Source of the DNA: Pseudo-nitzschia pungens
Taxonomy: Eukaryota; Bacillariophyta; Bacillariophyceae; Bacillariales; Bacillariaceae
DNA length: 64,000 nucleotides
Reading direction: 5' to 3'
Assembly (NCBI GenBank): GCA_037355855.1
Contig: CM074758.1
Location: 5,429,001-5,493,000, forward strand
In this document: positions 86-41,986 of the stretch, piece by piece
Position numbering within the stretch: the first letter of the stretch is position 1
Layout: every line of letters starts with the position of its first letter
Position numbers and translations under genes: made by a program
Notes under the pieces: generated by a model
Told to the model about the DNA's origin: nothing
Seen by the model: only the letters and a program-made list of their open reading frames with translations
The model's database searches: none

Positions 86-2371
86 TCAAAACCGTATCCG
101 TAAGATCTTATCCGTATCTTCTTCCAAGGGGCATTCCAAATGACACCACGGTCCAACCGATGGGTTTGGGTCCTTGGTGTCGGGACAGGCGGTCCCCTGA
201 AACATGTTCGTCACTTCCACGCTAACATTAAGGTTACTCGTATCGAAAGTCTTGTTGTTGGAAGCCCAACTCGACAGACACTGAGAAAACGCCGACGCCT
301 CTCGGAACATTCCCGACATCACGCGCACCCTGGCAACGTTCCATTCGTCCAGGGGCTGGTTGAAACTGGTTGCAGCCGCAAACATGCTCTTGGTGTCGGT
401 GACCGACGTAACGTTCCAGCTCCGGAGCGGCTGGTTGAACGAGGATGCGCTCTGGAACATCCCCGCCATCTTTTGGACCCTTGCTACGTTCCACCGCTGG
501 TTGAAGGCTTTGGCACCGGCAAACACGGAGGTCAATGTCGTCGCTCTGGAAACGTCCCAGTCGTTCAGAGGCTGGTCGAAGGAAGATGCTCCGTCAAAGA
601 TTCCCGCCATCCTCCGGACGCGCCCCACCCTCCACTTTTCCAGGGGCTGATTGAACCGCTCCGCCCCCCAAAACATGGACGTCATGTAGGTCACCTTGGA
701 CACGTCCCAGTTTTCCAGGGGCTGGTCGAACGCGGAAGCGTGCTCGAACATGCCCGGCATCTTGCGAACGCGGCTCGTGTTCCAGTGGTCGAGGGGCTGA
801 TTGAACACGGTGGCGTTCGAAAACATGTGCGTCGTCGCGGTGACGTGCCGGACGTTCCAGTCGTTCAGGGGCTGGTTGAACGAAGACGCGCGCTCGAACA
901 TGCCCGACATTTTCTTGACCTTTTGGACGTTCCACCCTTCGAGGGGTTGGTTGAAGGACTTTGCCTCGGAAAACATGGACGTCGTGCTGGTGACGCTCCG
1001 GGTGTCCCAGCGGTCGAGGGGCTGGTTGAAGGCGGAAGCGCGCTGGAACATGCCGGGCATTTTTCTGACCTTTTGGACGTTCCACTGTTCGAGGGGTTGG
1101 TTGAATTGCTCGGCGTGGGAAAACATGGACGTCATGCTCGTGACGCCGGCGACATTCCAGCTGCCGAGGGGACGATTGAATCCGGTGCATTTGTAGAACA
1201 TGCGCATCGTTTCTCTCAGGCGCGGACTCGTCGTCCACGAATCGATTGGTTGGTCGAAGGAAGATGCGGAAGAAAACATGTCATTCATGCTTTCCACGCT
1301 TGCCACGTCCCAGTAATGGAGAGGTTGGTTGAAGGAAGCCGCACCCGCAAACATGCCGTCCATGACCGTCACACGTGATGTATCCCAGCACTCGACGGAT
1401 TGGTCGAACAACGACAGGCCGGAAAAAGCACCAGTCATATCGGTAACCATCGAAGTATTCCAGCAGTTCAAGGGCAACTGGAAACCGTAGCTGCAGACCT
1501 TGCCGTAGAGACAATCGGAAATGGCCTTTTGCAAGTCCGCACCGTTGAGTCGGACCGAGGGGCGTTCTCCGCCGCAAGTTTGCAAACAATGCTCGTATTT
1601 TTGTGTGAGTTGGAGTTCGGGTTGCAGACCCCGCCGCAACCATCGGACGGTTGTGCCGCTGCGTGTAGCAGAAATAGGAGAAGTACCGGTAGGAAAAGTA
1701 GGAGAAATGCTCGATAACAACGCTGGTGGGTCCGGGGGGTCTTCCCGCGTGGCAAACCTCCCAAACTTTTTCGGAGTGGTACCGGCAGGGTACGGGTGCG
1801 TGGAGTAGAGACCGTGTGTGTCTTGGTGCGAACCATACACGTGCCAAGAAGAAGAAGAAGAACTCTCGTACTCAATAGCCTCATCCGACGTAACTCTGCT
1901 CGTAGCCGTGTCGGCACCGAATCGAAATCGAAAAGCGTCGACATCAGCATTGTAGAAATAATATCCATTGTCAACTGCACTCGCATCATCAGAAGCAAAA
2001 GCAAAAGTAGGCACGCCATGACTTGTACGACTTGACCGGTGCCCTTCGAGACCCTGGCTTTCGATGACACCCAGGTCCGGGTCCGGAGAGCCTTCGGACC
2101 ACTTCTCGGCTTGTCTTTCGGCCGGAGTTGATGTTCTTGTTCTTGTTCGTGTTGAAGCCTCAGCATTGTGTATGATTTTCGAGTTGTGAAGAGCCGTTTT
2201 GCGAAGACCACGATTTTCGAAGCGCCAGCCGGGGAAATGTATGTTTTCATTTGTAGCATGCAGCAGATGCTTCTGCAGAGCTTCTTCGTCGTGATCGTTG
2301 TTATCGTTGTTATCGCTGTTGACAGAGCCAATCGCAGCGAGAAGAGCAAGGACGGGAACAGCAAAACGCAT
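86..2371 (-). CDS. BspA-like (DUF285-type) secreted repeat protein
   Basis: A 761-residue intronless reading frame from an ATG at 2371. The first ~19 residues form a signal peptide (basic start, Ala/Leu core, small residues before a Ser-Asp junction). Residues ~20-250 are a low-complexity Ser/Thr/Asp linker. From ~255 to 735 there are about 17 repeats of ~25 residues with the consensus FNQPLxxWNVxxVxxMxxMF, the hallmark of BspA-like/DUF285 leucine-rich-type repeats known from bacterial surface proteins and expanded in several protists. No membrane anchor is visible at the acidic C-terminus, so it is probably secreted or wall-associated; adhesion or ligand binding is inferred from the family. 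Repeats alternate between two subtypes, giving a ~150-bp higher-order unit, and one repeat lacks three residues after FNQ. Confidence 0.85.
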   Translation of the reverse strand: MRFAVPVLALLAAIGSVNSDNNDNNDHDEEALQKHLLHATNENIHFPGWRFENRGLRKTALHNSKIIHNAEASTRTRTRTSTPAERQAEKWSEGSPDPDLGVIESQGLEGHRSSRTSHGVPTFAFASDDASAVDNGYYFYNADVDAFRFRFGADTATSRVTSDEAIEYESSSSSSWHVYGSHQDTHGLYSTHPYPAGTTPKKFGRFATREDPPDPPALLSSISPTFPTGTSPISATRSGTTVRWLRRGLQPELQLTQKYEHCLQTCGGERPSVRLNGADLQKAISDCLYGKVCSYGFQLPLNCWNTSMVTDMTGAFSGLSLFDQSVECWDTSRVTVMDGMFAGAASFNQPLHYWDVASVESMNDMFSSASSFDQPIDSWTTSPRLRETMRMFYKCTGFNRPLGSWNVAGVTSMTSMFSHAEQFNQPLEQWNVQKVRKMPGMFQRASAFNQPLDRWDTRSVTSTTSMFSEAKSFNQPLEGWNVQKVKKMSGMFERASSFNQPLNDWNVRHVTATTHMFSNATVFNQPLDHWNTSRVRKMPGMFEHASAFDQPLENWDVSKVTYMTSMFWGAERFNQPLEKWRVGRVRRMAGIFDGASSFDQPLNDWDVSRATTLTSVFAGAKAFNQRWNVARVQKMAGMFQSASSFNQPLRSWNVTSVTDTKSMFAAATSFNQPLDEWNVARVRVMSGMFREASAFSQCLSSWASNNKTFDTSNLNVSVEVTNMFQGTACPDTKDPNPSVGPWCHLECPLEEDTDKILRIRF

Positions 2372-24440: not shown

Positions 24441-25430
24441 ACACATAAGGTCTAACAGACTGGGCCAGATAGGTAAGGTTAGTTCGAAGACACCTGGCTG
24501 GATCCCCAATCGTACTTTCTTGTAGCGGATATCGCCGGAGACGTTGAAACCAAGCATCGTTGTGCCGGTACGTACACTTGTCACGTAAGAAGTTTTCAGT
24601 GTCGATGCTGCGTATTTTATTCACTTCTACAAGCTGCCTTTGGATCTGTTGGCTCACTACCCACGTTCTCTTTCCTTCCGATAGAGAACAAAGTCACGAG
24701 ATTTGGCAAGCTCAGAAAGCTGAAGATCTACGGCAACGGCAAGGACAGTCCTCGTGGAAAATTCACCGATTTTGACGCTCCTGTCTTTACAGTCACGAAA
24801 AAAGACTTTCGACCGCTCTACATCCAGGCCGTTCACGAATTTTGTATCCCCCCCGCCATTCCGAACACGACAGTGCCACTGCGGTCGTCAAGCTCCAAAT
24901 ATTGACGGAAAAAGAATTTTTTCTTTCCCCTCTGTTGTATCCATTCCGCTCGTCCCGACACAACAACAACGTGCATCTGTTGTTGCTGCTACACCTCCAC
25001 AAGAACACTGTTCGAAGAGACAGCAGCTGATTAAAGGTGCTCTCCTCATACACTGAGATACAATCAACATCCCCAATCGGTGTATCCATATCCAAGTTTT
25101 GTTGAATTCGAAGGAGTACATTTTGGAGTCACAAAGTTTCGGAATTACGACAAAATCCTGACAACGGCATATCATCAACAACCCCAACTCAACGCCTAAA
25201 CGCTTTACACCCAGGCTTACCAACGCCATCAATATTTGCCTTGTAGCAATTCATCACAGACACAACAGTTTCATTCCGATCCTGACACTTGACATATTGA
25301 CGGAGAAAGAATTTTTTTCCTCATTTGATCGTATCCATTTTGCTCGTGCGAACACAGCAGGCCTCTTTCTGTCAACGTTCCAGGAGAGACTGACGCAGCA
25401 ACACAGCAATACGCAGCTGATTTGACAACG
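24440..25430 (+). repeat. retroelement leader-like DNA upstream of the LRR gene
   Basis: Pieces match the copia element at 28221-36592 in the same order. TAAGGTCTAACAGACTGGGC near 24447 resembles the LTR at 28510. GCTGAAGATCTAC near 24719 resembles 28735. GACGGAAAAAGAATTTTTT at 24904 and again at 25300 resembles 28939. The last block is itself duplicated (24893-25032 and 25289-25423). This suggests a diverged LTR and leader of a related element lying directly in front of the LRR gene. Similarity was judged by eye and is patchy. Confidence 0.4.
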
Positions 25431-25780: not shown

Positions 25781-28233
25781 ATGGCTGAGTTAGAATCTAT
25801 TGGGAATGCAGCCGAAATTGGAGTCAATGCTACAATGGTGACAACGAATCAATTTCCAAGATTTCATCACAATGTTGCACGCATCCTCAAAGAATTGTTG
25901 GATGAAACCAATGATGAATCCCTCCTCTGCAGTGCTCTCATTGCATCCGGGTTTACTCAGTGGGACTCCTTTATTGAACTCACATCCACCACTGTCAACA
26001 GTCTTGCTTTGAGTGAACACGGAGTCCAAATTCCCACTTCCAAGGCACTTCATCGACAACTCTTGAAATTTGTGGCATTCAAAAAATATCTTGGAGATTC
26101 AGGCCAGAATTACAAGGATCCCAAATCATACACCAGAGCAGCTTTCGGAGATTTTGTTGTGTCCTATGGTGAAGTTCCACAGGTGAATTATCATACCATC
26201 TACGGTAGCAATGTCCATAACTCCACCAAAAATGACAATCAAGACAGCAATGAAACTTCCGATGCTGGGCATCAGGTGGAGAAAACACCAGACTTGGAGA
26301 GGAGCAAGGCAAAGGAGACAGACGCACGCTCCAATGAGAATTCATTGGAATTATCCGACGATGATATAGAGAGTGGTGCTCCAAAACATTATGGCAAGGA
26401 TTCAATCAATACTTTGATTAGGGAAGATACTGTAAACGATGAATCGAACAAGAAAAGTCAAAGGGAAGGAAACACAAATGAAGGGGATAGAGATACTAGT
26501 GAATTGTTCTGTGTTGAGGATATTCCACATCCAGTCTATCCAAAAGACTCCTATTCTTTCTTGTCCCTCCACGGGCCCATTGACCAACCACTTTTCTTTG
26601 GTATGGGAATTATGGTTTCCATCTTTCAAGTGTCGCTTGTTAGTATGATGTTACTAAGTGTTCTTCACCCAAACTGGGGTACAAAGCACGATGACAATCC
26701 AGATGATGATGTGCTTGGGAGAATTGTTCCTGCCAATGCAGATCCAGTCGTACAAGCAACACAGTTCATAGCTATTTCAGCCTATGTCTTGTTTGCAGAT
26801 GCATCTATGCTGGACATTACTACTGCAATTGAGAAATTCCCCAATTTCTCCAAAACCAACCATGGTGACAAAGTTGGATGCATGGTATTTTCTTGCATGC
26901 TTCGTTTGTTTCAAGGTTTGTTGGCAATGCTTGCAGCTTTTCTACTAATTGTAACATCAGAAACTGCAGTTGAGATTGTCCTAAACTTCTCTGCAGTGGT
27001 GAGAGCCATATTACGTTTCCAATTGACACCAGATTGCAATCAGATTACAGATGTTGTCTCACACTACTTTCCTCTGTTCTCCATTTCCTGGACACTTGCT
27101 CTTCATTAATTTTTTTCATTTGCCTTCTTGGAAAGAATTTCATAAGTAGCTTGGATAATGTGGCCTTTCAGTTGGCCTTGAGTGGGAAATATGGTAAAAA
27201 AGTTCAACACGAAGCAAAAAGAATCACCAAACTTCAACTCCCACCTTGCATGTCACGACGGAAGCATACTCGATTCCATTTCACTTTGGTATCTCTGGGT
27301 GCTATTTTTGTTGCATTCATGGGTCGAATCGTTTTTAACCAAACAGACCCAAATAAATGGCGTACTTATATTTTCAGGGTTGACTTCCAGACAACAGAAC
27401 TCCAAGGGTTCAGTGGATGCTACAAACAGATGAATCAAAGCCAGTCATCAGGCTTGAAGCTACACAAGAGAGATGTCTATTTTCTGGAAGAAGCTGACAA
27501 TGACACACCAAGGTTTCAGTACTGCATTAAGGATCGCCGTTGGACACTATCCTCAAATACTACTCATGCATGTCAGAAAGAGGCAAAGGCTGATGAACTT
27601 GCATTTTCATCCAAGATGGACACCTTTGACATATTGACTGCTTTTGATGAGGGATGGTACAGTGCTTCTGGCACGCCTATTGATGTGTCTGTATTCAAAT
27701 GGCCAAAAAAGGAGGAGCAAATTTGCTACTCGATTGATGATGGAAAATGTGACGATAAATTGAACAACTTGACATTGGGATATGATGGTGGAGATTGCTG
27801 CTCTGCAACATGCTCTCATTCTGTCTGTGGGATTGATGCCATCACCAAAGCTTTTGGTGTGTCAAACATCACTGGCAATGGCTTTCCCAACTGCACAGAT
27901 CCAAGCATGGTTCCAATCACAATCCATCTTGGTAACGTTACAGAATCAGAAAAAGATCCGTGGTGTTATGAAGAAGGCAATCCAGTTGACAATCCTTATC
28001 TTATCCTTGAGTGCGAGGGAAAAATTGTTTTATCACTTGACATCAGTGAAAACATGACCAATGGTAGTGAGACTGTTCATGTCAGTGATCGTGCAAATTG
28101 CCTTATGACAGTGAAGAATCAAACTGATATCACCAATACCATCTGGTATTTTGACTATTCCCTTTACATGGGAGACAGTGTTGCAAACACTACAAAGATC
28201 CTTGCAGGCAACAGTGTTGATGTTAAATTGTAA
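25781..28233 (+). pseudogene. 5' fragment of the split LRR gene
   Basis: What could be translated from this haplotype: exons 25781-26998 and 27136-28233 (intron 26999-27135, GTGAGA...GGAAAG). The product would carry the gag-like domain, four membrane helices and the LNR motif but no LRRs. It would end with four codons read from the inserted element (a codon made across the junction, then three LTR codons) before TAA. It might act as a soluble-ectodomain-lacking decoy or be removed by decay. Confidence 0.7.
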
Positions 28234-31200
28234 CCAAAATCGGTTTTCGTTTGACAAACCCTTAACCCTACATACATTACATATGAACGCTCACACACTG
28301 CGCGTAAAGAAAACAAAATATTTTCTACTGAGTTTACAGTACAAGAAAACAAGCAGCAGCAGCAGCAACCACTCAGTAGAATTAACAAGACAGCAACGTC
28401 GAATTCCCGACAAGGTTGTTGTCCTCACATCTTTAGTTTAACTCTGATTTGAATACCTTGATACTTACATCCTGCTCTTTGAGCAGCTCCCTGTAGAACT
28501 ACAAGCCTAAGGTCTAACTGACTGAGCCCACAGGTAGTTAGAATAGACCTGGTCGATTCGTTCGATCGTAGTGGTAAATCCGAGACTATCGATAGAATAA
28601 ACCGGCACCTCAACCGGTTTGCATGCCTTTGCTCTTGCTGCATCTCCAAGCTTGCCCTGGGATCTATCAGCTTAAACCAGTTTCAGCTACATTTTTACAG
28701 ATTAACAGTCGCAAGCTTATTTTAAGCTTGCAAAGCTGGAGATCTACAAACAACACGAACTAACAAGGAACAAGGAACAACGACGACGAAAGACGAAAGA
28801 CGAAATCGACGCTGCTCTCAGTTTTAATTCCATACTGGAACATCAAGCCCCCTGTCGCAAGGCCGTTCCAGGTATTATTATTCTCCTTGTTATTACGGTT
28901 AATACGGTACAAACGGCGTCTCCAAATTCCAAGAACTGACGGAGAAAGAATTTTTTGAAATTCTTCTGCTGCTGCTGCACCTATTCCTCCAGTCACGACG
29001 AGACCCAAGTACAACATATAACCTCCCACTGATAGATCTGTATTCTCCGAATACAGCTGTATCTTCCTCTGTATCCACCAGGCAAATATACCCTGTTCCC
29101 TTGCCGGATACACCTCCTCGGATTTATCCACACCACACGAACGTTGTTTTCGAACGACAACAACGGCGTTTCGGAACACCACACGAACAACGACGGTTTT
29201 CGAACTACAAGTCCATCTATAAATTCAACACTCTGTTTTAACGGTGTTTTTCGAACGACAACGGCGCTTTCGAACAACAACGGTGTTCCACGGTGTTTTC
29301 GAACCACAACGGTCCCCACGACAACGGCGTTTCGAACAACAACGGCGACGGCGCTTTCGAACCACAAAGCGTTCAGCAATATTTAACCTCCACTGAGTTC
29401 ACGAATACAGCTGCAATAACAACTGTATTCCTCCAGGCATATTTTCTTCCTATTCTTGGATCTTATTCTATCCTTGGATCTTATCCTACTTTTGGATACT
29501 GGATCCTATACCATCGAATTTCGGATATTCTATGCCATACCAAACCCGACAACGAGCTCCATTTCCTAATACCACCGAAGACACCTACCGTACCTTCCAA
29601 TCTATTCAAACTGCAGCTCGCACCCGATTCAACACGAACACGATGTCCGACGACCATGCAAGCACGAACACCAACGACGCGAATGACGCATCCACCGATG
29701 ACGGTGATTCATTCTTCCCTTCGTTTGATTCGCATGTGGCACACATCCTTCGCAACTTCCTCAACATCCACACAGAGGATGGGGATATCATCTGTGATGC
29801 ACTCCGCTATGTTGGCTACACCACCTGGGGCGAATTTCGATTCTTATCCCATGACCTCATCTCCTGTCTCCAATATGAAGACCAGCACGGCCGTCTCGTA
29901 TCCATTTCCCCTGGTCATACCCTACGGCTACGCCCCATTGCTGCCTACATAAACCACATTAAAACCACTGTCGGCTTACGAGAATCACTGGACTTCGCCA
30001 ACTATAACTCCGATGCATTCCATGAATTCCGAGCCACTTATCACGCACCATCACTCTCCCCACCTGCTCCACCCCATCAGCTGACCACCCCCCACGAACG
30101 CACACAGCACACCTCCTCTTCCCGCTTTGTCAAAACCGATGAACAACTCAAATACGAGAACTGGATCAAACGATCCCATGATGTCACTGTTTTTGATGTT
30201 CTCAAGAATGACACTCGGTTTGAAACCTGGCTCACCGGCTTTCGTGCTCAACTTGCTGCTTATGACTTTGATGTTGATCAGTTCCTTAACCCTGAATGGG
30301 ATACCTCCACTCTCGACGGCTACCATCACAAACTCTTTCAGAAACAATGCACCTTTTTCTGGGTTCTTATCCTCCGTGTCCTCAAGTCTGACCTCTCCCT
30401 CTCCTGTGTCCAAACACACACACCCACCATGGATGGACGAGCTGCTTATTTTGAGTACATTAAACTCCGTGCATCGACCTTCACTCAAGAGTTTGACATT
30501 GCCAAACAGACCCAAACCCTTCAATCCCTCAACCTTGCCTCCTGGAAGGAATCCACTGTCAAATTTCTTACACACTGGTTTGACCAATATGACCTCTTAT
30601 GCAAGATGACAGCCCCCAAGTCCCCCATGCAATATCACATGCTTCGGACCCTCCTTCTCAATGCCTGTGCACATGACGCTCATCTCAGTGACCAGTTTTC
30701 CAAAGTGCCTCTTCCTTCCACTCGTGACCTTTCCCAAGGCAACGACACTGTCCACATCCTTAAACTCAAAACCACTCTCTTGGCTGAAGCAACACGACTG
30801 GACTCTCGTGCAACCCTCACTTTGCCCACTTCTCGGAGCACCATTCGCGCCAACCTCCACGAAGCCTTTTCATTCCTTGACGCCTCTGAGTTGACTGATG
30901 ACTTCATGGATGATGTCCAAACCTATGCTGCTTTCCGTGCCTCTCAGCCCCGTAAACCTGATCCCAGCACACGCCTTCCTGACTCTTTCTGGAAAAGTCT
31001 CACACCTGAGGGCATGACCCTCTGGCGAAAAATGAATCCTGTGGATAAACGCAAATTCATTGCTGTTCTCAATCCCACTAAATTCCCTGACCTTCATTCC
31101 TTTTCCACCCCAACTACTAAACCTGTTGGCCGCAAAGCCTATGCCACTGACCTTCTCACTGGACCATACACTGCACCCGCATCCCTCCCGGCTTCTACCA

Positions 31201-34200
31201 CCTTTTCTGACCCTTCTGCTTTTGATGATATTGCCTACGTTGCCTCCGATGATGTTGCCAACGATGCCTCCGATGCTTTGGTCACCCAATGGATTGCTCG
31301 CCAACACGGCTCCACTCCCACAGGGTCCTTCCAAGAACTTTCCAAACGCCACGCCACCACCAGGCAATCTCAATCCAGCAAGCCCTCCGGACACACCCAA
31401 CTTCCACTTGCATCTTCCATGTCCCCTGGGCATCCCGCACGCCTCCTTGCTGACAACAAGCCCAAACCACCTACTCAACTTGTTGCTCGCATGGCTGATG
31501 GTTCCAGTTCTGTTGTTGCTCGGTTCGATGACCCTGTTGCTTGTCAGTCCGTCACCCATCTCCTCCAACAACATACCAGCCCCCACAACTGGTCAGCCTG
31601 CCAACACCACACTTATTGCTGCAGCCAGGGTCGTTTCTCCACTCCCAATCTTGCCATGATCGATCGTGGTGCCAATGGCTGTATCATTGGGCGCGATGCT
31701 ACCCTTATTTCTGTCGATGTCCCAAAACGGTTTGTGCATGTCACTGGCATCAACAATCATCAGATGCAGAACATTCCAATTGCTACTGCTGGTGCTTATT
31801 GCCACTCCAACCGTGGTCCTGTCATTCTGATTTTTCATGAATGTGCCTACACTGGGAAACACGACTCTATCATCTCCTCTGCTCAATTGGAAGCCCACCA
31901 CCTCACCGTTGATGACAAATCCCTCAAATCTGGTGGCAAACAAATCATCTCCACTCCTGATGGCTTTGTCTTTCCCCTCTCCATTCAACACGGGCTCCCA
32001 TATCTGCGCATGCGTAAATTCACACCAGCCGAATATGATTCCCTGCCCCATGTGATCATGACCTCTGACCAATTTTGGGATCCCACCCTCCTTGATCAAG
32101 ACTACCATGCCAGTGATCCCTCATTTGTGGCATTATACCCTGACACTCTCACCGACCTTCCTCACCCTGACATCGATCTACAGGGCAATCCTCGCAATCT
32201 CAACCCCAGGCACCCTGATTCCTCCACACAGTTTCACACCACCCTCCTAAATCCTGGTTCCTGTGTCCACTTCCACGAGTTTGTCACCGTCCCTAGCATT
32301 GACAATCCTGGCCCTTCTGTCTCTGCCTCGGCCATCGCTGCTGGTTCATTTTGGCTTCACGATGCTGACTATTTTCACAGTGAACTTCTCGCTCGCTGCG
32401 CTTTCACCGCACTCCAATCCAAAATTGACCCATCTGACGATGACATCTCAGACCCCATCCTCTTTGCCACCGACCAACCTCGCACGTCGGCTGCCACCCC
32501 TCATGACTTTGCTGCCCTGAAACCATTCTTTGCCTGGATTCCCATTGACAGGATTCATGCCACCTTTCAGAACTCCACTCAATACGGTTCCCTGCCCAAC
32601 AGTCCTGACGGCACCCTTTTCAAGCGGTACAAAGCACCTCAACCTGCCATGAATGTCCGCCCCTTTAATGATGATGTCCTCTCCGATGCCATCTATTGTG
32701 ACACCCCCGCCATTGATGGAGGTTCCAAAATGGCTCAACTCTTCTTTGGGCGCCTTTCCCACATCATCCACGTTGAACCCATGAAAACTACCGGTGAATT
32801 CCTTTCCTGCTTCCAGAATTTTGTTCGCACCTGGGGAAGACCACTTCGCCTGCTTTGTGACTCTGGTAAATACCAAGCCAGCAACCGTGTTCTTGACTAC
32901 CTTCGCCTCCTCTGGATTCGGCTCTGGCAATCTGAACCATATTACCAACACCAAAACAAGTTTGAGCGACGCTATCAAACCTTTCTCCGCACTGTCAATC
33001 GTGTCATGGACCGCACTGGCACCCCCCCTCACCTGTGGTTCCACTGCATGCAATATATTGCTGGCTTACTCAACCATATCTCTGACCCCACTCTCCATGA
33101 TCGTCAACCCATTTTTGTTGCCACTGGCACTCTTGGTGACATCTCTGCCTACACCGCATTCTTTTGGTTCGAGCCTGTCTACTTCAAAGTGGATGACTCC
33201 CCCTTTGGGTCTCCCACCGAACGCTTCGGGCATTTCGTTGGCCTCGCTGATCACGTCGGCAATGCCATGACCTTCAACATTTGGGTCCCTGACACCAACA
33301 AGATTGTCCCTCGGAGCAATGTCCGCACTGCTTTAGATGCCTCTACCCGCAACCAACGTGCTGGGACTTTCACTGACGATGCCTTCCTCGCCTGGCGTCA
33401 ACACCTCAATTCCTCTCACCTACCCACTGCCTCTGGTGACACTCCGTCTCGCACTGCGTATGATCCTCTTCCTGTCTCACCTGCTTCCTCTTCTGTTTAT
33501 CGTGCCTCTGACACTTATGCCCAGATTGATGGCACATGGCAAATTGTTCCACTCAAGCACAACTATGGGGAGATGGGTGATGCACCTTTTCGTCAGGTGG
33601 TCTACACCAAAGACAAAACGGGTACTCCACGCCTTGAATCAGATTTTGGTGATCCTGAACTTGCTTATCTTGACACAAGCGTCTCACCAGCTGATCCAAG
33701 CCTTGATTACATTCCCGACACCGGTCCATCGAAGGTAGTTCTACTTGACCATGATGGCAATCCTGTATGCAACCAACATGGGGAGCTACAAACAATTGAT
33801 GCCATCCCTCCTGATGATCTCATTGGACGTTCCTTCCTCATCTCCAATCCCGATGGCACAAGGACCCGAACCACTGTTGTCAGCATTCTTGACAAGCTCC
33901 AAACGAACCCTGACCTCATCAAGTTCAAATGCAACCACGACAATGACACTGTTGATGACGTCATTGCATACAATGACATCATGAATCACATCCATCGTGA
34001 CGAAACTCAAGAAGATGGCCCATTGTGGGCCTTCAGACGCATTCTTGGACACCAAGGTCCATTGACTCACCGTCATCCCGACTACAAGGGAAGCCTTTAC
34101 AATCTATGGGTTGAATGGGAAAACATGGAACGTACTTTTGAACCACTCAACATAATGGCAGCTGATGACCCTGTCACTGTGGCACAATATGCCAAGGAAC

Positions 34201-37200
34201 ACAACCTCTTACAAACCAGAGGTTGGAAACGACTTCGGCGCATTGTCAAACTGGCCAAACGTACCAAACAATTGGAGCGCCTCACCAAACAAGCCAAACT
34301 CAGATCCTTCAACACCAGTCCCAAATACCAATATGGATTCCAAGTCCCCAACAATCATGAAGAAGCTGTCCAACTGGACATCAAGAATGGCAACACCAAA
34401 TGGCAAGATGCCATCAAGCTTGAAATGCAACAACTCCATGAATATGACACCTTTATTGACAATGGACTCTTTGAAGCATCCAACATTCCTTCTGGATATC
34501 AACAAATCAAAGTCCACATGATCTTCGCAGTCAAACATGATGGACGTCACAAGGCAAGACTTGTAGCCAATGGCAATCTCACAGATGTACCACTTGACAG
34601 CGTGTATGCTGGTGTGGTGTCACTCCGGGGCCTTCGCATGTGCCTGTTTGCAGCTGAACTCAACTCCCTTGATGCATGGGGCACTGACATTGGAAATGCC
34701 TATTTAGAAGCCCTAACCTCTGAAAAGGTCTGCATCAAAGCAGGTCCAGAGTTTGGTCCACTCAAAGGTCACATGCTGCTTATCCACAAAGCTCTTTATG
34801 GCCTACGATCTTCTGGGAAATGTTTTGGTGACCTTCTCGCTGCCTGCCTCATTGAACAAGGTTTTGAACGGTCCAAGAATGAAGCTGAAATCTTCATGCG
34901 TCCTGGCGTTAACAAACATGGGGAGCCTGTTTATGAATATGTGGCAACCTATGTTGATGATCTTTGTGTATGCATGTCAGAACCAAACCAATTTCTTGAA
35001 GTCCTCCAAGCTGAACCCTACAACTTCAAACTCAAAGGTTCAGGACCCATGCAATTCCATCTTGGATGTGGTTTCACAAGAGACAAACATGGGATCCTAT
35101 GTATGGATCCATCCAAATTCATCTCCAAACTTGAAACCTCTTATCAGCAGATGTTTGGATGTGCACCTAAAACAAGAGCACAGTCTCCACTTGAAGAAAA
35201 TGACCATCCTGAACTTGACACATCTGACTTCCTTGATGAAGAAGACACCAAGAAATACCAGAGCATGATTGGATCCCTCCAATGGCTTGTCACGATCGGG
35301 CGCTTTGATATTCAAACAGCTGTGATGACAATGTCCAGTTTCAGAACTCAACCAAGACAAGGCCACTTGGAACGTGCAAAACGCATCTACGGTTATGTAA
35401 CAAAGTTCAAAGGATTCAAAATTCGCTTTCGCACTCAAGCTCCAGAACTCCCAGTTTCTGCCTCTGACAACAAGTCTCACGATTGGTCACTCAGTGTGTA
35501 TGGTGAATGCAAAGAAGAACTGCCAACTGATGCACCGACACCACTTGGCAAACCTGTTGTCCTCAACCATTTCTATGATGCAAATCTCATGCATGATATT
35601 CTCTCTGGGAAAGCTGTCACTGGCATCCTGCATTTTGCAAACAAAACACCAATCATGTGGTTCTCCAAGAAACAATCCACTGTGGAAACTGCAACTTTTG
35701 GTGCTGAATTTGTTGCAGCAAGGACATGCATTGAACAGATTGTAGACTTGCGCCAATCATTTCGATACATGGGTATCCCTGTCAAAGACACATCATTTGG
35801 ATGGGGAGACAATGAAAAGCAAGTACTCAGCGCTTCATTTCCTTATGCAAGACTCCACAAGAGACACAATATCCTCACATATCACTATGTTCGAGGCATG
35901 ATTGCACGAGGCTTCATCAACCTGCAACACATTGTTGGTAAGGACAACTGTGCTGACATCCTCACCAAACATTGGAGTCACAATTCTGTCTATTCCCTGA
36001 TTAAACCCATCTTCAACTATGAAGGCAACACCGGTGATCTTTTCATTCAAGATTGATGACATCATACCCTGTTGGTAGATTGAACATGGCAAAATCAAGG
36101 AACAGATGGGGAGTGTTAAATTGTAACCAAAATCGGTTTTCGTTTGACAAACCCTTAACCCTACATACATTACATATGAACGCTCACACACTGCGCGTAA
36201 AGAAAACAAAATATTTTCTACTGAGTTTACAGTACAAGAAAACAAGCAGCAGCAGCAGCAACCACTCAGTAGAATTAACAAGACAGCAACGTCGAATTCC
36301 CGACAAGGTTGTTGTCCTCACATCTTTAGTTTAACTCTGATTTGAATACCTTGATACTTACATCCTGCTCTTTGAGCAGCTCCCTGTAGAACTACAAGCC
36401 TAAGGTCTAACTGACTGAGCCCACAGGTAGTTAGAATAGACCTGGTCGATTCGTTCGATCGTAGTGGTAAATCCGAGACTATCGATAGAATAAACCGGCA
36501 CCTCAACCGGTTTGCATGCCTTTGCTCTTGCTGCATCTCCAAGCTTGCCCTGGGATCTATCAGCTTAAACCAGTTTCAGCTACATTTTTACAGTTGAAGA
36601 AGGAAGTGTATCCTTTAAGGCGATTCCTGAATGCATGATAGACAAGCTTTCTGTGGCTGCTAATGTATTTGCATTATACAATGATTTTCATGCAAAGCAA
36701 GCTCTGTACTGGATTGTTGAAGATGACTCAGGGAATTCAGACTGTAGTGACGAATATTTCAATGAGAGATTTGGACTGAGTCTATTGAACTATAGTGCCC
36801 CAGTGAAAGGCGGGGGAAGATCATGGATCAATTCCAATCCAACATGTCTCTGGTCTGCAATAGTTTGCAAGAAAGATTTAGCTCCCAAAGAACTGGATTT
36901 GAACCAATTGGGACTTTCTGGGACAATTCCAAAATATACAATGTTGCTACAATCATTTTCCAGATTGTCTTTAGGTGAGTTGAGACTCGTAGCATACTTT
37001 TTTGAAAAATGTTCATGTAACTGTAATGGAGCTAATTGGTAGTCTCTTCACATTTTTCAGGTAACAATGAATTGATTGGAACCATTCCTTCTGAGATTGG
37101 ATTGTTGAGAAACTTGACATATCTTTCTTTGTGTGAGTGCGGATGTTGTAGTGGTTGTTGGAGGCGTGAACAGAGATTGGGGGTTTGTCAATGTTTTGTG

Positions 37201-40200
37201 TTTTTGTGTTATTCGATTTGTTGATGATATACTTAATGTGTGTGTTGAATATTTGTTTCATCTTGTGTATTATTATGTGTTTGCAGATGAGAATGAATTG
37301 AATGGAAGCATTCCTTCTGAGATTGGGTTGTTGACAGGCTTGACAGGTCTTGATTTGTGTGAGTGCGGATGTTGTAGTGGTTGTTGATGGTGTGAAAGAT
37401 TGGGGTTTTGTGAATGCTGTGTGTTTTTGTGTCAATGGATTTGTTGATGATATACTTAAAATGTGTGTGTTGAATGTTTGTTTCGTGTTGTGTATTGGTG
37501 TGTGTTTGCAGCTTGGAATCAATTGACTGGAACCATTCCTTCTGAGATTGGGTTGTTGACAGGCTTGTATGTTCTTTCTTTGTGTGAGTGGGGATGTTGT
37601 AGTGGTTGTTGATGGTGTGAAAGATTGGGGTTTTGTGAATGCTGTGTGTTTTTGTGTCAATGGATTTGTTGATGATATACTTAATGTGTGTGTCGAATGT
37701 TTGTTTCATGTTTTGTATTGGTGTGTTTGCAGCTGTGAATCAATTGACTGGAAGCATTCCTTCTGTGATTGGGTTGTTGACAGGCTTGGAATATCTTTCT
37801 TTGTGTGAGTGGGGATGTTGTAGTGGTTGTTGATGGTGTGAAAGGTTGGGGTTTTGTGAATGCTGTGTGTTTTTGTGTCAATGGATTTGTTGATGATATA
37901 CTTAATGTGTGTGTTGAATGTTTGTTTCACGTTGTGTATTGGTGTGTGTTTGCAGCTTGGAATGAATTGAATGGAAGCATTCCTTCTGAGATTGGGTTGT
38001 TGACAGGCTTGACAGGTCTTGATTTGTGTGAGTGCGGATGTTGTAGTGGTTGTTGATGGTGTGAAAGATTGGGGTTTTGTGAATGCTGTGTGTTTTTGTG
38101 TCAATGGATTTGTTGATGATATACTTAAAATGTGTGTGTTGAATGTTTGTTTCATGTTGTGTATTGGTGTGTGTTTGCAGTTGAGAATGAATTGAATGGA
38201 ACCATTCCTTCTGAGATTGGGTTGTTGACAGGCTTGACAGGTCTTGATTTGTGTGAGTGGGGATGTTGTAGTGGTTGTTGATGGTGTGAAAGATTGGGGT
38301 TTTGTGAATGCTGTGTGTTTTTGTGTCAATGGATTTGTTGATGATATACTTAAAATGTGTGTGTTGAATGTTTGTTTCACGTTGTGTATTGGTGTGTGTT
38401 TGCAGCTTGGAATGAATTGAATGGAAGCATTCCTTCTGAGATTGGGTTGTTGACAGGCTTGACAGGTCTTGATTTGTGTGAGTGGGGATGTTGTAGTGGT
38501 TGTTGATGGTGTGAAAGATTGGGGTTTTGTGAATGCTGTGTGTTTTTGTGTCAACGGATTTGTTGATGATATACTTAATGTGTGTGTCGAATGTTTGTTT
38601 CATGTTGTGTATTGGTGTGTGTTTGCAGATGAGAATGAATTGAATGGAAGCATTCCTTCTGAGATTGGGTTGTTGACAGGCTTGACAGGTCTTGATTTGT
38701 GTGAGTGGGGATGTTGTAGTGGTTGTTGATGGTGTGAAAGGTTGGGGTTTTGTGAATGCTGTCTGTTTTTGTGTCAATGGATTTGTTGATGATATACTTA
38801 ATGTGTGTGTTGAATATTTGTTTCATCTTGTGTATTATTATGTGTTTGCAGATGAGAATGAATTGAATGGAAGCATTCCTTCTGAGATTGGGTTGTTGAC
38901 AGGCTTGACAGGTCTTGATTTGTGTGAGTGCGGATGTTGTAGTGGTTGTTGATGGTGTGAAAGATTGGGGTTTTGTGAATGCTGTGTGTTTTTGTGTCAA
39001 CGGATTCGTTGATGATATACTTAAAATGTGTGTGTTGAATGTTTGTTTTGTGTTGTGTATTGGTGTGTGTTTGCAGCTTGGAATCAATTGACTGGAACCA
39101 TTCCTTCTGAGATTGGGTTGTTGACAGGCTTGTATGTTCTTTCTTTGTGTGAGTGGGGATGTTGTAGTGGTTGTTGATGGTGTGAAAGATTGGGGTTTTG
39201 TGAATGCTGTGTGTTTTTGTGTCAATGGATTTGTTGATGATATACTTAATGTGTGTGTCGAATGTTTGTTTCACGTTGTGTATTGGTGTGTGTTTGCAGC
39301 TTGGAATGAATTGACTGGAACCATTCCTTCTGAGATTGGGTTGTTGACAGGCTTGTATGTTCTTTCTTTGTGTGAGTGGGGATGTTGTAGTGGTTGTTGA
39401 TGGTGTGAAAGATTGGGGTTTTGTGAATGCTGTGTGTTTTTGTGTCAATGGATTAGTTGATGATATACTTAATGTGTGTGTCGAATGTTTGTTTCATGTT
39501 TTGTATTGGTGTGTTTGCAGCTTGGAATCAATTGAATGGAAGCATTCCTTCTGAGATTGGGTTGTTGACAGGCTTGGAATATCTTTCTTTGTGTGAGTGG
39601 GGATGTTGTAGTGGTTGTTGATGGTGTGAAAGATTGGGGTTTTGTGAATGCTGTGTGTTTTTGTGTCAATGGATTTGTTGATGATATACTTAATGTGTGT
39701 GTTGAATGTTTGTTTCACGTTGTGTATTGGTGTGTGTTTGCAGCTTGGAATCAATTGACTGGAAGCATTCCTTCTGAGATTGGGTTGTTGACAGGCTTGA
39801 CAGGTCTTGATTTGTGTGAGTGCGGATGTTGTAGTGGTTGTTGATGGTGTGAAAGATTGGGGTTTTGTGAATGCTGTGTGTTTTTGTGTCAATGGATTTG
39901 TTGATGATATACTTAATGTGTGTGTTGAATGTTTGTTTCACGTTGTGTATTGGTGTGTGTTTGCAGCTTGGAATGAATTGAATGGAAGCATTCCTTCTGA
40001 GATTGGGTTGTTGACAGGCTTGACAGGTCTTGATTTGTGTGAGTGCGGATGTTGTAGTGGTTGTTGATGGTGTGAAAGGTTGGGGTTTTGTGAATGCTGT
40101 GTGTTTTTGTGTCAACGGATTCGTTGATGATATACTTAATGTGTGTGTCGAATGTTTGTTTCATGTTGTGTATTGGTGTGTGTTTGCAGATGAGAATGAA

Positions 40201-40743
40201 TTGAATGGAAGCATTCCTTCTGAGATTGGGTTGTTGACAGGCTTGACAGGTCTTGATTTGTGTGAGTGCGGATGTTGTAGTGGTTGTTGATGGTGTGAAA
40301 GATTGGGGTTTTGTGAATGCTGTGTGTTTTTGTGTCAATGGATTTGTTGATGATATACTTAAAATGTGTGTGTTGAATGTTTGTTTCATGTTGTGTACTG
40401 GTGTGTGTTTGCAGATGAGAATGAATTGAATGGAAGCATTCCTTCTGAGATTGGGTTGTTGACAGGCTTGGAATATCTTTATTTGTGTGAGTAAAGAACT
40501 TTGACAGAAGAATTGTTCAAGGGAATTATTGTGATTTGTATAAGTATAAGGTCTTTAGTTCCTTTTGTGGTTAATTTTTTTCTCAATTATTTTGTCATGC
40601 TGTGTCTTTTGGCCGTGTTTTCAGCTAATTCAATGTGTGAAGGTGATGAGGTTTTGTCATTGACAAACCTCACTTGTGCAGAAGATTATTTTGAGGATGA
40701 AGTTGGTGGTAACATCACGTATTGTTCATGCAGCATCTATTAA
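25781..40743 (+). CDS. LNR/LRR multi-pass membrane protein, interrupted by a copia insertion
   Basis: Model with the insertion ignored: exons 25781-26998, 27136-28220, 36598-36974, sixteen 72-bp exons (starts 37061, 37287, 37512, 37733, 37956, 38181, 38406, 38629, 38852, 39077, 39300, 39521, 39744, 39967, 40190, 40415) and 40625-40743. They sum to 3951 nt, one frame, 1316 residues. Order: gag-like N-terminal domain (~25-115), charged linker, helices near 270-292, 326-348, 366-392 and 451-473, an LNR-type motif (CDDKLNNLTLGYDGGDCC, ~605-625), an LRR N-cap (NPTCLWSAIVC) and about 17 plant-type LRRs to ~1277, then a Cys-containing tail. Start: the ATG at 25781; an upstream in-frame TTG is not needed. 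Receptor or adhesion function is inferred. In this haplotype translation would stop 9 nt into the LTR, at 28231. Confidence 0.8.
26999..27135 (+). other. intron 1 of the LRR gene (137 bp)
   Basis: Starts GTGAGAGCC and ends TTGGAAAG. Removing it joins ...NFSAV to NFISSLDNVAF without a frame break (phase 0), which gives a continuous membrane segment. A conserved junction of this kind is typical of this diatom protein group. Confidence 0.75.
28221..28699 (+). repeat. 5' LTR of the copia element
   Basis: 479 bp, starting TG and ending CA, matching 36114-36592. It contains a short (CAG)n run and is presumed to carry promoter and polyadenylation signals, though no canonical TATA box was pinpointed. 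Confidence 0.95.
28711..28731 (+). promoter_or_regulatory. perfect hairpin just after the 5' LTR
   Basis: GCAAGCTTA-TTT-TAAGCTTGC, a 9-bp perfect stem beginning 12 bp after the LTR, i.e. overlapping or abutting the primer-binding region. The initiator-tRNA complement TGGTATCAGAGC common in copia elements is not seen here, so priming may differ. Confidence 0.5.
29148..29372 (+). repeat. GTTTTCGAAC / ACAACGGCG minisatellite in the copia leader
   Basis: Degenerate ~25-30-bp units (TTTCGAACNACAACGGCG) in the untranslated leader of the copia element. It is partly open in several frames but ends before the polyprotein start. Confidence 0.55.
29532..36056 (+). CDS. Ty1/copia Gag-Pol polyprotein (2174 codons, intact)
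   Basis: A single ORF with domains in copia order. Residues 1-~690 are gag, with an N-terminal domain at ~60-170 related to the N-terminus of the host LRR gene. Protease: MIDRGANGC with Asp711; DRGA instead of DSG/DTG is familiar in diatom CoDi elements. Integrase: Asp1057 (YCDTPAIDGG), then LLCDSGKY and the Glu of NKFERRY. Reverse transcriptase: TDIGNAYLEA and YVDD at 1807-1810. RNase H: Asp2016 (YDAN), Glu2059 (GAEFVAARTC) and KDNCADILTKHW near the end. There are no stops or frameshifts and all catalytic residues are present. The ATG at 29643 is an alternative start. No separate gag frame or env is present. Confidence 0.95.
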   Translation: MPYQTRQRAPFPNTTEDTYRTFQSIQTAARTRFNTNTMSDDHASTNTNDANDASTDDGDSFFPSFDSHVAHILRNFLNIHTEDGDIICDALRYVGYTTWGEFRFLSHDLISCLQYEDQHGRLVSISPGHTLRLRPIAAYINHIKTTVGLRESLDFANYNSDAFHEFRATYHAPSLSPPAPPHQLTTPHERTQHTSSSRFVKTDEQLKYENWIKRSHDVTVFDVLKNDTRFETWLTGFRAQLAAYDFDVDQFLNPEWDTSTLDGYHHKLFQKQCTFFWVLILRVLKSDLSLSCVQTHTPTMDGRAAYFEYIKLRASTFTQEFDIAKQTQTLQSLNLASWKESTVKFLTHWFDQYDLLCKMTAPKSPMQYHMLRTLLLNACAHDAHLSDQFSKVPLPSTRDLSQGNDTVHILKLKTTLLAEATRLDSRATLTLPTSRSTIRANLHEAFSFLDASELTDDFMDDVQTYAAFRASQPRKPDPSTRLPDSFWKSLTPEGMTLWRKMNPVDKRKFIAVLNPTKFPDLHSFSTPTTKPVGRKAYATDLLTGPYTAPASLPASTTFSDPSAFDDIAYVASDDVANDASDALVTQWIARQHGSTPTGSFQELSKRHATTRQSQSSKPSGHTQLPLASSMSPGHPARLLADNKPKPPTQLVARMADGSSSVVARFDDPVACQSVTHLLQQHTSPHNWSACQHHTYCCSQGRFSTPNLAMIDRGANGCIIGRDATLISVDVPKRFVHVTGINNHQMQNIPIATAGAYCHSNRGPVILIFHECAYTGKHDSIISSAQLEAHHLTVDDKSLKSGGKQIISTPDGFVFPLSIQHGLPYLRMRKFTPAEYDSLPHVIMTSDQFWDPTLLDQDYHASDPSFVALYPDTLTDLPHPDIDLQGNPRNLNPRHPDSSTQFHTTLLNPGSCVHFHEFVTVPSIDNPGPSVSASAIAAGSFWLHDADYFHSELLARCAFTALQSKIDPSDDDISDPILFATDQPRTSAATPHDFAALKPFFAWIPIDRIHATFQNSTQYGSLPNSPDGTLFKRYKAPQPAMNVRPFNDDVLSDAIYCDTPAIDGGSKMAQLFFGRLSHIIHVEPMKTTGEFLSCFQNFVRTWGRPLRLLCDSGKYQASNRVLDYLRLLWIRLWQSEPYYQHQNKFERRYQTFLRTVNRVMDRTGTPPHLWFHCMQYIAGLLNHISDPTLHDRQPIFVATGTLGDISAYTAFFWFEPVYFKVDDSPFGSPTERFGHFVGLADHVGNAMTFNIWVPDTNKIVPRSNVRTALDASTRNQRAGTFTDDAFLAWRQHLNSSHLPTASGDTPSRTAYDPLPVSPASSSVYRASDTYAQIDGTWQIVPLKHNYGEMGDAPFRQVVYTKDKTGTPRLESDFGDPELAYLDTSVSPADPSLDYIPDTGPSKVVLLDHDGNPVCNQHGELQTIDAIPPDDLIGRSFLISNPDGTRTRTTVVSILDKLQTNPDLIKFKCNHDNDTVDDVIAYNDIMNHIHRDETQEDGPLWAFRRILGHQGPLTHRHPDYKGSLYNLWVEWENMERTFEPLNIMAADDPVTVAQYAKEHNLLQTRGWKRLRRIVKLAKRTKQLERLTKQAKLRSFNTSPKYQYGFQVPNNHEEAVQLDIKNGNTKWQDAIKLEMQQLHEYDTFIDNGLFEASNIPSGYQQIKVHMIFAVKHDGRHKARLVANGNLTDVPLDSVYAGVVSLRGLRMCLFAAELNSLDAWGTDIGNAYLEALTSEKVCIKAGPEFGPLKGHMLLIHKALYGLRSSGKCFGDLLAACLIEQGFERSKNEAEIFMRPGVNKHGEPVYEYVATYVDDLCVCMSEPNQFLEVLQAEPYNFKLKGSGPMQFHLGCGFTRDKHGILCMDPSKFISKLETSYQQMFGCAPKTRAQSPLEENDHPELDTSDFLDEEDTKKYQSMIGSLQWLVTIGRFDIQTAVMTMSSFRTQPRQGHLERAKRIYGYVTKFKGFKIRFRTQAPELPVSASDNKSHDWSLSVYGECKEELPTDAPTPLGKPVVLNHFYDANLMHDILSGKAVTGILHFANKTPIMWFSKKQSTVETATFGAEFVAARTCIEQIVDLRQSFRYMGIPVKDTSFGWGDNEKQVLSASFPYARLHKRHNILTYHYVRGMIARGFINLQHIVGKDNCADILTKHWSHNSVYSLIKPIFNYEGNTGDLFIQD
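36097..36113 (+). promoter_or_regulatory. polypurine tract
   Basis: AAGGAACAGATGGGGAG directly abuts the 3' LTR and is almost all purine, as expected for the plus-strand primer of an LTR retrotransposon. Confidence 0.8.
36114..36592 (+). repeat. 3' LTR of the copia element
   Basis: 479 bp matching the 5' LTR base for base as far as can be read by eye, followed by the second GTTGA target duplication at 36593-36597. Confidence 0.95.
37061..40486 (+). repeat. tandem exon-intron array: sixteen 72-bp LRR exons
   Basis: Each unit is a 72-bp exon bounded by TTTGCAG and GTGAGT plus a ~149-154-bp intron, period 221-226 bp. Every exon is phase 1 at both ends and encodes one 24-residue LRR (NELNGSIPSEIGLLTGL plus a variable tail). 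Exon 1 of the set and its upstream intron are divergent; the following fifteen units are nearly identical in exon and intron alike. Variable positions are the first two residues (YE, SW, FE, SV), Asn/Thr, Ser/Thr and the last five residues. Confidence 0.9.
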
Positions 40744-41486
40744 TAGTATTTTTGTTAATTATTATGTTGTTTTGTTTGTTTGGGGTTGGGGCTGTTGGGG
40801 TTGGGGTTGTTGGGGTTGGGGTTGTTGGGGTTGGGGTTTTTGTTGTTGGGGTTTTTGTTGTTGGGGTTTTTGTTGTTGGGGTTTTTGTTGTTGGGGTTGT
40901 TGGGGTTGTTGGGGTTGGGGTTGTAGGGGTTGGGTTTGTTGGGGTTGGGGTTGGGGTTGTTGGGGTTGGGGTTGTTGGGGTTGGGGTGTTGGGGTTGGTT
41001 GGGGTTGTTGGGGTTGTTGGGGTTGGGGTTGTTGGGGTTGTTGGGGTTGGGGTTGTTGGGGTTGTTGGGGTTGGGGTTGTTGGGGTTGGTTGGGGTTGTT
41101 GGGGTTGGGGTTGTTGTTGTTGGGGTTGTTGGGGTTGGGGTTGTTGGGGTTGGGGTTGTTGTTGTTGGGGTTGGGGTTGTTGGGGTTGGGGTTGTTGGGG
41201 TTGGGGTTGTTGTTGTTGGGGTTGGGGTTGGGGTTGTTGTTGTTGGGGTTGTTGGGGTTGGGGTTGGGGTTGTTGGGGTTGGGGTTGTTGGGGTTGTTGG
41301 GGTTGTTGGGGTTGGGGTTGTTGGGGTTGGGTTGTTGGGGTTGGGGTTGTTGGGGTTGGGGTTGTTGGGGTTGGGTTGTTGGGGTTTGGGGTTGTTGTTG
41401 GGGTTGGGGTTGTTGGGGTTGGTTGGGGTTGTTGGGGTTGGGGTTGTTGGGGGGTTGGGGTTGTTGGGGTTGGGGTTGTTGGGGTT
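40744..41486 (+). repeat. GGGGTT/GTTGTT-rich low-complexity array
   Basis: About 740 bp built only from TTGGGG and TTGTTGGGG units plus TTTTTG variants. It begins immediately after the stop of the LRR gene and runs into the assembly gap. The minus strand would read as Pro/Asn/Gln/Thr repeats in every frame. It has dozens of G4 runs and is strongly quadruplex-prone. Confidence 0.85.
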
Positions 41487-41986
41487 NNNNNNNNNNNNNN
41501 NNNNNNNNNNNNNNNNNNNNNNNNNNNNNNNNNNNNNNNNNNNNNNNNNNNNNNNNNNNNNNNNNNNNNNNNNNNNNNNNNNNNNNNNNNNNNNNNNNNN
41601 NNNNNNNNNNNNNNNNNNNNNNNNNNNNNNNNNNNNNNNNNNNNNNNNNNNNNNNNNNNNNNNNNNNNNNNNNNNNNNNNNNNNNNNNNNNNNNNNNNNN
41701 NNNNNNNNNNNNNNNNNNNNNNNNNNNNNNNNNNNNNNNNNNNNNNNNNNNNNNNNNNNNNNNNNNNNNNNNNNNNNNNNNNNNNNNNNNNNNNNNNNNN
41801 NNNNNNNNNNNNNNNNNNNNNNNNNNNNNNNNNNNNNNNNNNNNNNNNNNNNNNNNNNNNNNNNNNNNNNNNNNNNNNNNNNNNNNNNNNNNNNNNNNNN
41901 NNNNNNNNNNNNNNNNNNNNNNNNNNNNNNNNNNNNNNNNNNNNNNNNNNNNNNNNNNNNNNNNNNNNNNNNNNNNNNNNNNNNNN
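41487..41986. other. assembly gap (500 N)
   Basis: Exactly 500 undetermined bases, a conventional scaffold-gap placeholder, so the true distance and the reading frame across it are unknown. It probably covers the rest of the G-rich array and the 3' end of the minus-strand gene. Confidence 0.95.

What the first reader, a model, noticed from the sequence alone, without database searches (positions are those of the whole stretch)
25781..40743. A young copia element sits inside a coding exon of an otherwise perfect LRR gene
Seen: LTRs that match throughout, GTTGA duplicated on both sides and an intact 2174-codon ORF. With the insertion and one GTTGA removed, 20 exons sum to 3951 nt, a multiple of 3, with no stop. 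Known: identical LTRs mean too little time for substitutions. Inferred: this is a fresh loss-of-function or altered-function allele of a receptor-like gene, possibly present on only one haplotype, and the element may be currently mobile.
Basis: partly seen in the sequence, partly recalled or inferred. Interest (0 to 1): 0.9.

Follow-up and report, generated by a model that had tools for sequence, protein, structure and literature searches.

The report
Jumping gene inside gag-fused receptor gene
In a Pseudo-nitzschia-like diatom a very recently moved retrotransposon has cut a cell-surface receptor gene in two, and several members of that receptor family are fused to pieces of the same kind of retrotransposon.

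Summary
An 8,372 bp Copia-type element (28221-36592) has LTRs identical over 479/479 bp, a GTTGA duplication and an open 2,174-codon frame, inside exon 2 of an LRR receptor gene that is otherwise open (3,951 nt; 19 exons, not 20). A second copy, identical over 8,372/8,372 bp, has another duplication (GTTTC) and unrelated flanks: recent transposition. Paralogues show the uninterrupted site.

The larger result lies outside the claim. The gene's N-terminus resembles the gag N-terminal domain of this Copia lineage; at least 12 of 59 receptor loci carry such a domain. A single origin is rejected (AU p 0.0004). One gene is LTR + leader + 488 aa of gag (76% identical to the inserted element) + receptor; another has two gag domains in element order. 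In the window's subfamily the domain shows dN/dS 0.41 and occurs in a P. pungens protein. Same-strand LTR-leader sequence precedes receptor loci more often than shuffles give, though loci are partly related. LRR exons vary mainly in amino acids. Best reading: repeated capture of Copia promoter and gag pieces by fast-evolving receptors, one now interrupted. The donor of this gene's own domain, haplotype status and gag function are untested.

The parts
24865..24965 (+). degenerate stretch resembling the Copia leader, upstream of the receptor gene
   Evidence: weak local matches to the leader of the element and of LTR-led receptor genes (67-88% over 29-171 bp, E 4e-11 to 5e-5 in small searches)
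25260..25359 (+). second such stretch, about 72% like the first, with an exact 20-22 bp match to leaders
   Evidence: contains a 17-mer found 75 times in the genome, 0 in the reversed control
25781..26998 (+). receptor gene exon 1: gag-like domain, linker, first hydrophobic segments
25853..26167 (+). gag-like N-terminal domain (residues 25-129)
   Evidence: 28% to element gag, E 4e-7; 40% to type-B gag over 120 columns, E 2e-19; alignment A1
27136..28220 (+). receptor gene exon 2, part before the insertion
28216..28220 (+). target site duplication GTTGA, 5' copy
28221..28699 (+). 5' LTR
   Evidence: identical to 3' LTR, 479/479
28700..29531 (+). untranslated leader of the element
29532..36056 (+). 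single gag-pol ORF, 2174 codons
29715..30041 (+). gag N-terminal domain of the element (residues 62-170)
34470..35135 (+). reverse transcriptase (Pfam RVT_2)
   Evidence: E 1.5e-19
36114..36592 (+). 3' LTR
36593..36597 (+). target site duplication GTTGA, 3' copy
36598..36974 (+). receptor gene exon 2, part after the insertion
37061..40486 (+). 16 LRR exons of 72 nt each; the 14 introns between the last 15 average 97% identity
40625..40743 (+). last exon and stop codon
   Evidence: conserved at 5 other loci

Best explanation
Shown: an intact Copia-type LTR retrotransposon transposed very recently into exon 2 of a multi-copy LRR receptor gene, after codon 767 of 1316, and the LTR supplies a stop three codons on. 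Shown: other receptor genes of the same family carry, in their coding exon, gag N-terminal domains of this Copia lineage from more than one source, and some lie directly behind a same-strand Copia LTR and leader. Inferred mechanism: elements insert in or just upstream of receptor genes; deletion or ectopic recombination then joins LTR-leader-gag to the receptor exon, giving a gene with an LTR promoter and a gag N-terminus, after which the module duplicates with the gene and can be kept by selection. The window locus shows the insertion step inside a gene that already carries an older gag-like module. Inferred for this allele: a truncated membrane protein without LRRs, and possibly a separate LRR-only transcript from the 3' LTR.
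For: Identical LTRs and TSD; second copy with 0 differences in 8,372 bp, TSD GTTTC, flanks alike only in dispersed repeats. Empty site in 17 of 19 other loci. Gag-receptor fusion C1:3675083-3677515, 372/490 identical to the window element's gag, LTR and leader upstream, 82%. C7:3313114-3315936 with two gag domains; the first groups with first domains of two-domain ORFs (95/89), the second with a clade holding their second domains and single-domain elements (89/93). C11:784150-785538: domain 41% to element gag, E 1.3e-19. Window subfamily of 9 genes. One origin rejected, AU p 0.0004; the four A-type domains alone, p 0.002. dN/dS of the domain 0.41 (bootstrap 0.26-0.66) against 0.82 (0.58-1.20) in the linker. 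P. pungens protein P0001 has the domain, E 1e-39, plus the receptor start. Same-strand LTR+leader within 2.5 kb upstream of 4 of 59 receptor loci, 1 on the opposite strand, 0.11 expected, 0 of 1000 shuffles as high; 17-mer at 7 loci against 0.27, 0 of 1000.
Against: For the window gene's own subfamily the domain is only 28% identical to the inserted element and 40-42% to type-B gag, which sits on a long branch (1.89), so its donor is not identified and the reverse direction is not excluded there. The association counts are weaker than they look: the LTR query came from a receptor-linked copy and only 40 of 380 candidates were scored; the 17-mer was chosen because it stands before the window gene (without it 6 loci remain); two loci are one duplicate pair and three are close paralogues. 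The intervals of dN/dS for domain and linker overlap. Some rows labelled TE in the tree (two-domain and three-domain ORFs) were not checked for pol. Trees carry long-branch warnings. The structural model is poor (pLDDT 57). No RNA data. Among 15 protein relatives, 13 receptor relatives show no clear gag domain, though several start close to the receptor part. Only 24 of 59 loci were held as sequence: 12 with and 12 without the domain.
Confidence: 0.85

Rival explanations
1. Ordinary case: a fresh Copia insertion into one gene of a large family; the gag resemblance elsewhere is incidental debris of elements lying in TE-rich regions and has no function.
For: The same regions hold many elements; another insertion into a receptor gene is a type-B LTR inside an LRR intron at C4.
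Against: Open frames across the fusions, dN/dS 0.41 in the domain, a P. pungens protein with the fusion, same-strand enrichment, with its caveats.
Confidence: 0.12
2. The domain was a host receptor domain first and was captured by Copia gag; the window subfamily shows the ancestral arrangement.
For: Direction is not fixed for the window subfamily (28% and 40-42% identity); short leader-like stretches lie upstream of several receptor genes.
Against: C1:3675k carries 488 aa of gag, of which only the N-terminal domain is seen in other receptor genes here; C7:3313k keeps the two-domain order seen in gag ORFs; 13 receptor relatives from other sources show no clear domain, several being partial.
Confidence: 0.1
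3. The receptor genes are passengers carried inside LTR elements (transduction) and move with them.
For: 5' LTR and leader directly ahead of receptor genes; an LTR fragment follows the LRR array at C1:4851k.
Against: Introns are kept; the LTR after that array lacks the polypurine tract seen in the element; the duplicate pair L026/L027 is alike beyond the LTR (3 differences in 3,474), so it is a segmental duplication. Only four downstream regions were fetched.
Confidence: 0.05

Closest known systems
CoDi / Blackbeard Copia elements of Phaeodactylum tricornutum (PMC2806351; passages and one section read)
   Same: Recent Ty1/copia-type insertions in a diatom; many found on one haplotype only
   Different: No gag-receptor fusions in the passages I saw; CoDi group membership of this element was not tested
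Plant NLR immune receptors fused to copia gag domains (PMC4759884; passages read)
   Same: LRR receptors found fused to copia gag-type domains in several plants; [quoted passage not shown]
   Different: Diatom LRR proteins with several hydrophobic segments, not NLRs; here LTR and leader are still attached in one case and the same element family has moved recently
TR-GAG non-autonomous elements (papers seen as a search listing only)
   Same: Type-B element at C7 has LTR, gag and LTR with no room for pol
   Different: The listed papers concern plants; the diatom element is not formally classified
Domesticated metaviral capsid genes in mammals (PMC11011659, search listing only)
   Same: gag-derived sequence kept by the host
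   Different: There capsid genes are described as genes of their own; here gag is a module of a receptor

Membership tests
Ty1/Copia LTR retrotransposon | paired LTRs with TG..CA ends and target site duplication | tested here: met
   also at the C7 copy
Ty1/Copia LTR retrotransposon | Copia-type reverse transcriptase (RVT_2) | tested here: met
   E 1.5e-19, residues 1647-1868
Ty1/Copia LTR retrotransposon | integrase encoded before reverse transcriptase | tested here: inconclusive
   no Pfam integrase match; a DDE-like stretch before the RT was read by eye, motif recalled
CoDi group of diatom Copia elements | place in RT phylogeny | not tested
   no CoDi sequences fetched
TR-GAG element (type-B, C7:3363325-3367474) | LTRs and gag without pol | tested here: met
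   LTRs 99.8% over 426 bp, 4.15 kb, gag 708 aa; definition recalled
LRR receptor-like protein | tandem plant-type LRRs with membrane segments | tested here: met
   16 LRR exons; four hydrophobic segments; homologue P0011 matches LRR families
Domesticated gag gene | gag-derived sequence kept in a host gene under selection | tested here: met
   dN/dS 0.41, bootstrap 0.26-0.66, 9 genes, pooled pairs; P. pungens protein. For this subfamily the gag origin itself is likely, not proven
Domesticated gag gene | host function shown | not testable with these tools
   needs experiment
Receptor with integrated decoy (works like plant NLR-ID) | integrated domain binds the parasite's protein | not testable with these tools
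   no binding data

The most novel reading that the evidence does not exclude
Fast-evolving LRR receptors of this diatom use captured gag modules as sensors or dominant inhibitors of the very Copia elements that move in the genome, refreshing the module by new captures as elements diverge: a retrotransposon-fed receptor repertoire, with the LTR also supplying element-linked expression.
Probability: 0.12. Interest if true: 0.92.

Novelty: new variant of a known kind. Interest (0 to 1): 0.72.

Why it matters
Gag-receptor fusions are listed for plant NLRs, but there the authors found the evidence for a role of transposon activity insufficient (PMC4759884, passages). Here one genome holds several apparent stages side by side: a recently moved element, a fresh insertion in a receptor gene, a fusion with LTR, leader and much of gag still attached, a two-domain case, and an older subfamily whose gag-like domain shows constraint. 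That makes the origin and use of such fusions directly testable.

Tried and rejected
Receptor genes as passengers of LTR elements: not supported in the cases seen (no polypurine tract before the one LTR found after an array, introns kept, duplication extends past the LTR). Segmental duplication as the cause of the second identical element: rejected, flanks are alike only in dispersed repeats and TSDs differ. Fold search: not run, model too poor. PDB by profile: no match at E 1. Pfam for the 24 domains: five families, each matched by one member, best E 0.05. Homology searches with two other fusion proteins gave 2 and 9 hits; by length of match and by eye these fit the receptor part, except P0015, which looks like a gag protein; both searches scored only a capped set of about 8,000 candidates.

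Literature: the searches listed no title or abstract start that describes gag-receptor fusions in diatoms; this covers only that open-access library, those terms and the rows listed. PMC5485032 (P. multistriata genome; passages) names LRR receptor-like genes, two of them with Ka:Ks above 1, but whether they belong to this family was not checked.

Limits of counts: the shuffle used guessed lengths for contigs C2, C10 and C22. The profile was built from alignment A1, so members of A1 match it by construction; P0001 is not a member. Pair tests (C1 with either C7 domain) were chosen after seeing the tree.

Full report
WHAT IS THERE. The window is C1:5429001-5493000 of a 66.9 Mb, 28-contig genome. 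The element spans 28221-36592 (8,372 bp). LTRs are identical over 479/479 bp and GTTGA flanks both ends. One ORF of 2,174 codons carries RVT_2. A copy at C7:3536267 is identical over 8,372/8,372 bp, is flanked by GTTTC on both sides, and its flanks share only dispersed repeats with the window. With the P. tricornutum base substitution rate of 4.77e-10 per site per generation (abstract of PMC6604790), no difference in 8,372 bp puts the split of the copies below about 3.8e5 generations (95% bound; another species' rate and no gene conversion assumed, so rough). The LTR query listed 42 matches, 40 of 234 candidates being scored.

THE HOST GENE. ATG 25781 to stop 40743: 3,951 nt including the stop, 1,316 codons, 20 pieces that are 19 exons because the insertion splits exon 2. 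Intron 1 differs in length among the window and 15 paralogues, as an intron should. Joined flanks align across the site in 17 of 19 other loci, 99.4% over 678 bp to C11 (L036) and 98.1% to C5 (L033). The last exon is conserved at 5 other loci, one with a stop. The LTR brings a stop three codons on, after codon 767, so a product without LRRs is expected; that, and any transcript from the 3' LTR, is inference.

THE N-TERMINUS IS GAG-RELATED. Residues 25-129 of the host protein match residues 62-170 of the inserted element's own gag (28%, E 4e-7) and match better the gag of a 4.15 kb LTR-gag-LTR element without pol, called type-B here (40% over 120 columns, E 2e-19). In alignment A1 of 24 rows eight columns are invariant. 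The domain has no PDB match at E 1 and no Pfam match below 0.05; the predicted model is all-helical but poor (pLDDT 57).

HOW WIDESPREAD. I clustered 55 of 106 rows and 58 of 69 rows (gag-only rows and secondary fragments left out) into 59 receptor loci, a few of them fragments. At least 12 carry the gag domain in the same reading frame: nine in the window's subfamily, plus C1:3675083-3677515, C7:3313114-3315936 and C11:784150-785538 (start codon of the last unsure). Of 24 loci held as sequence 12 have it and 12 do not; the other 35 were covered only by six-frame protein searches. C1:3675k is the clearest: an 810-aa ORF whose first 488 residues are Copia gag, 372/490 identical to the window element, joined where gag-less relatives have their own N-terminal start, with LTR and leader upstream in the same orientation (82% over element 156-718). 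C7:3313k has two gag domains; the first groups with the first domains of two-domain ORFs (95/89), the second with a clade that holds their second domains and single-domain elements (89/93). One of those two-domain ORFs (C4:6065k) lies behind a Copia LTR and leader; pol was not checked for either.

INDEPENDENT ORIGINS. On a tree of 30 domains the receptor label needs five changes, three forced by well-supported branches; the tool warns of long branches. Holding all 14 receptor domains together is rejected (AU p 0.0004), as is holding the four A-type ones together (p 0.002); pairing C1 with the second or the first C7 domain gives p 0.005 and 0.033, pairs chosen after the tree. On a tree of the receptor part (35 rows; P0001 dropped as too short) gag-bearing and gag-less genes are interleaved, five changes, two forced. 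The window subfamily groups with type-B, but type-B has a branch of 1.89, so its donor stays uncertain.

SELECTION AND AGE OF CAPTURE. Across the nine genes dN/dS is 0.41 in the gag domain (bootstrap 0.26-0.66), 0.37 in the membrane part (0.27-0.51) and 0.82 in the linker (0.58-1.20); pairs are pooled and the first and last intervals overlap slightly. A P. pungens protein (P0001, from the MMETSP set, which I recall as transcriptomes) has the domain and the start of the receptor part. Of the other 14 proteins found, 13 are receptor relatives without a clear domain, several of them short at the N-terminus, and P0015 looks like a gag protein by eye. I infer a capture that predates at least one species split, followed by constraint.

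LTR AND LEADER IN FRONT. Of 40 LTR+leader places (40 of the 47 rows, short ones dropped), 4 lie within 2.5 kb upstream of a receptor locus on the same strand and 1 on the opposite strand; shifting places by up to 300 kb with random strand gives 0.11 on average and never 4 in 1000 trials. C1:3675k is a fifth case, beyond 2.5 kb because gag lies between. A 17-mer of the leader (75 of 75 exact places, 0 in the reversed control) gives 7 loci against 0.27 expected, 0 of 1000, with 1 on the opposite strand and 1 downstream, which is the inserted element itself. Against this: the LTR query came from a receptor-linked copy and only 40 of 380 candidates were scored; the 17-mer was picked because it precedes the window gene, so 6 loci are the fair count; two loci are one segmental duplicate pair (L026/L027) and three are close paralogues that share their upstream region, so events are fewer than loci. 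Read as sequence, clear LTR or leader stretches stand before L014, L020, L022, L026, L027, L028 and the C1 gene, and none was found in sense before L019, L021, L023, L024, L029 and L031. The window gene keeps only two degenerate stretches. In its C4 paralogue an LTR and leader (85-88%) have replaced the older upstream sequence about 420 bp before the ATG.

RECEPTOR ARRAY. In 15 LRR exons of the window gene pN is 0.110 and pS 0.012, while introns differ by 0.030; changes sit at 8 of 23 codons. Five other loci were examined (pN, pS, intron): C4 shows the same (0.129, 0.020, 0.034), C5 (0.166, 0.073, 0.066) and C11:14k (0.162, 0.139, 0.093) point the same way, while C11:2235k (0.134, 0.144, 0.197) and C1:4847k (0.211, 0.340, 0.280) do not. 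Young arrays thus look diversified by selection; pairs of exons are not independent, and no formal test was made.

MECHANISM. Shown: recent transposition; disruption of the frame; gag fusions of more than one origin; constraint on the domain. Supported with caveats: same-strand LTR association. Inferred: fusion by deletion or recombination between nearby elements and receptor genes, the shared LTR-leader giving the homology; LTR-driven expression; any role of the gag part, whether assembly of receptors or sensing or blocking of elements.

NOVELTY. Recent, haplotype-specific Copia insertions are known in diatoms (PMC2806351, section on haplotypes read). Copia gag fused to plant NLRs is known, with transposon involvement stated as not sufficiently supported (PMC4759884, passages). 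I found no report of diatom gag-receptor fusions with the searches. I therefore file this as a new variant of a known kind.

Noticed in passing
window 37287-40486: LRR exons differ more than their introns (pN 0.110, pS 0.012, introns 0.030): an array that looks diversified by selection. The C4 paralogue is alike; of four more loci two point the same way and two do not.
   Followed up: partly
C7:3363325-3367474 (L072, L064): Type-B LTR-gag-LTR element without pol; 11 loci, this one included, have a gag domain identical over 119 aa, so the family looks very recently active. It lies amid other retroelement-like ORFs.
   Followed up: partly
L075 (C4:3000-9000): A type-B LTR begins inside an LRR intron of another gag-receptor gene: a second insertion into a receptor gene body.
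   Followed up: partly
L068 (C9:2784500-2786900): An ORF with three gag N-terminal domains in tandem and a proline/alanine-rich tail, behind a Copia LTR and leader.
   Followed up: no
L026 and L027 (C1:4845k and C1:5235k): Receptor genes duplicated about 390 kb apart in opposite orientation with 3 differences in 3,474 bp.
   Followed up: partly
window 40761-41986: A long TTGGGG/TTG-rich array begins just after the receptor stop codon and runs into a 500-base assembly gap (41487-41986).
   Followed up: no
window 86-2371, minus strand: An ORF of 761 aa matching DUF285 in five stretches (E 4e-151).
   Followed up: no
window 29532-36056: The protease-like site reads D-R-G where D-S/T-G is usual (read by eye, motif recalled); whether this is normal for the lineage was not checked.
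   Followed up: no
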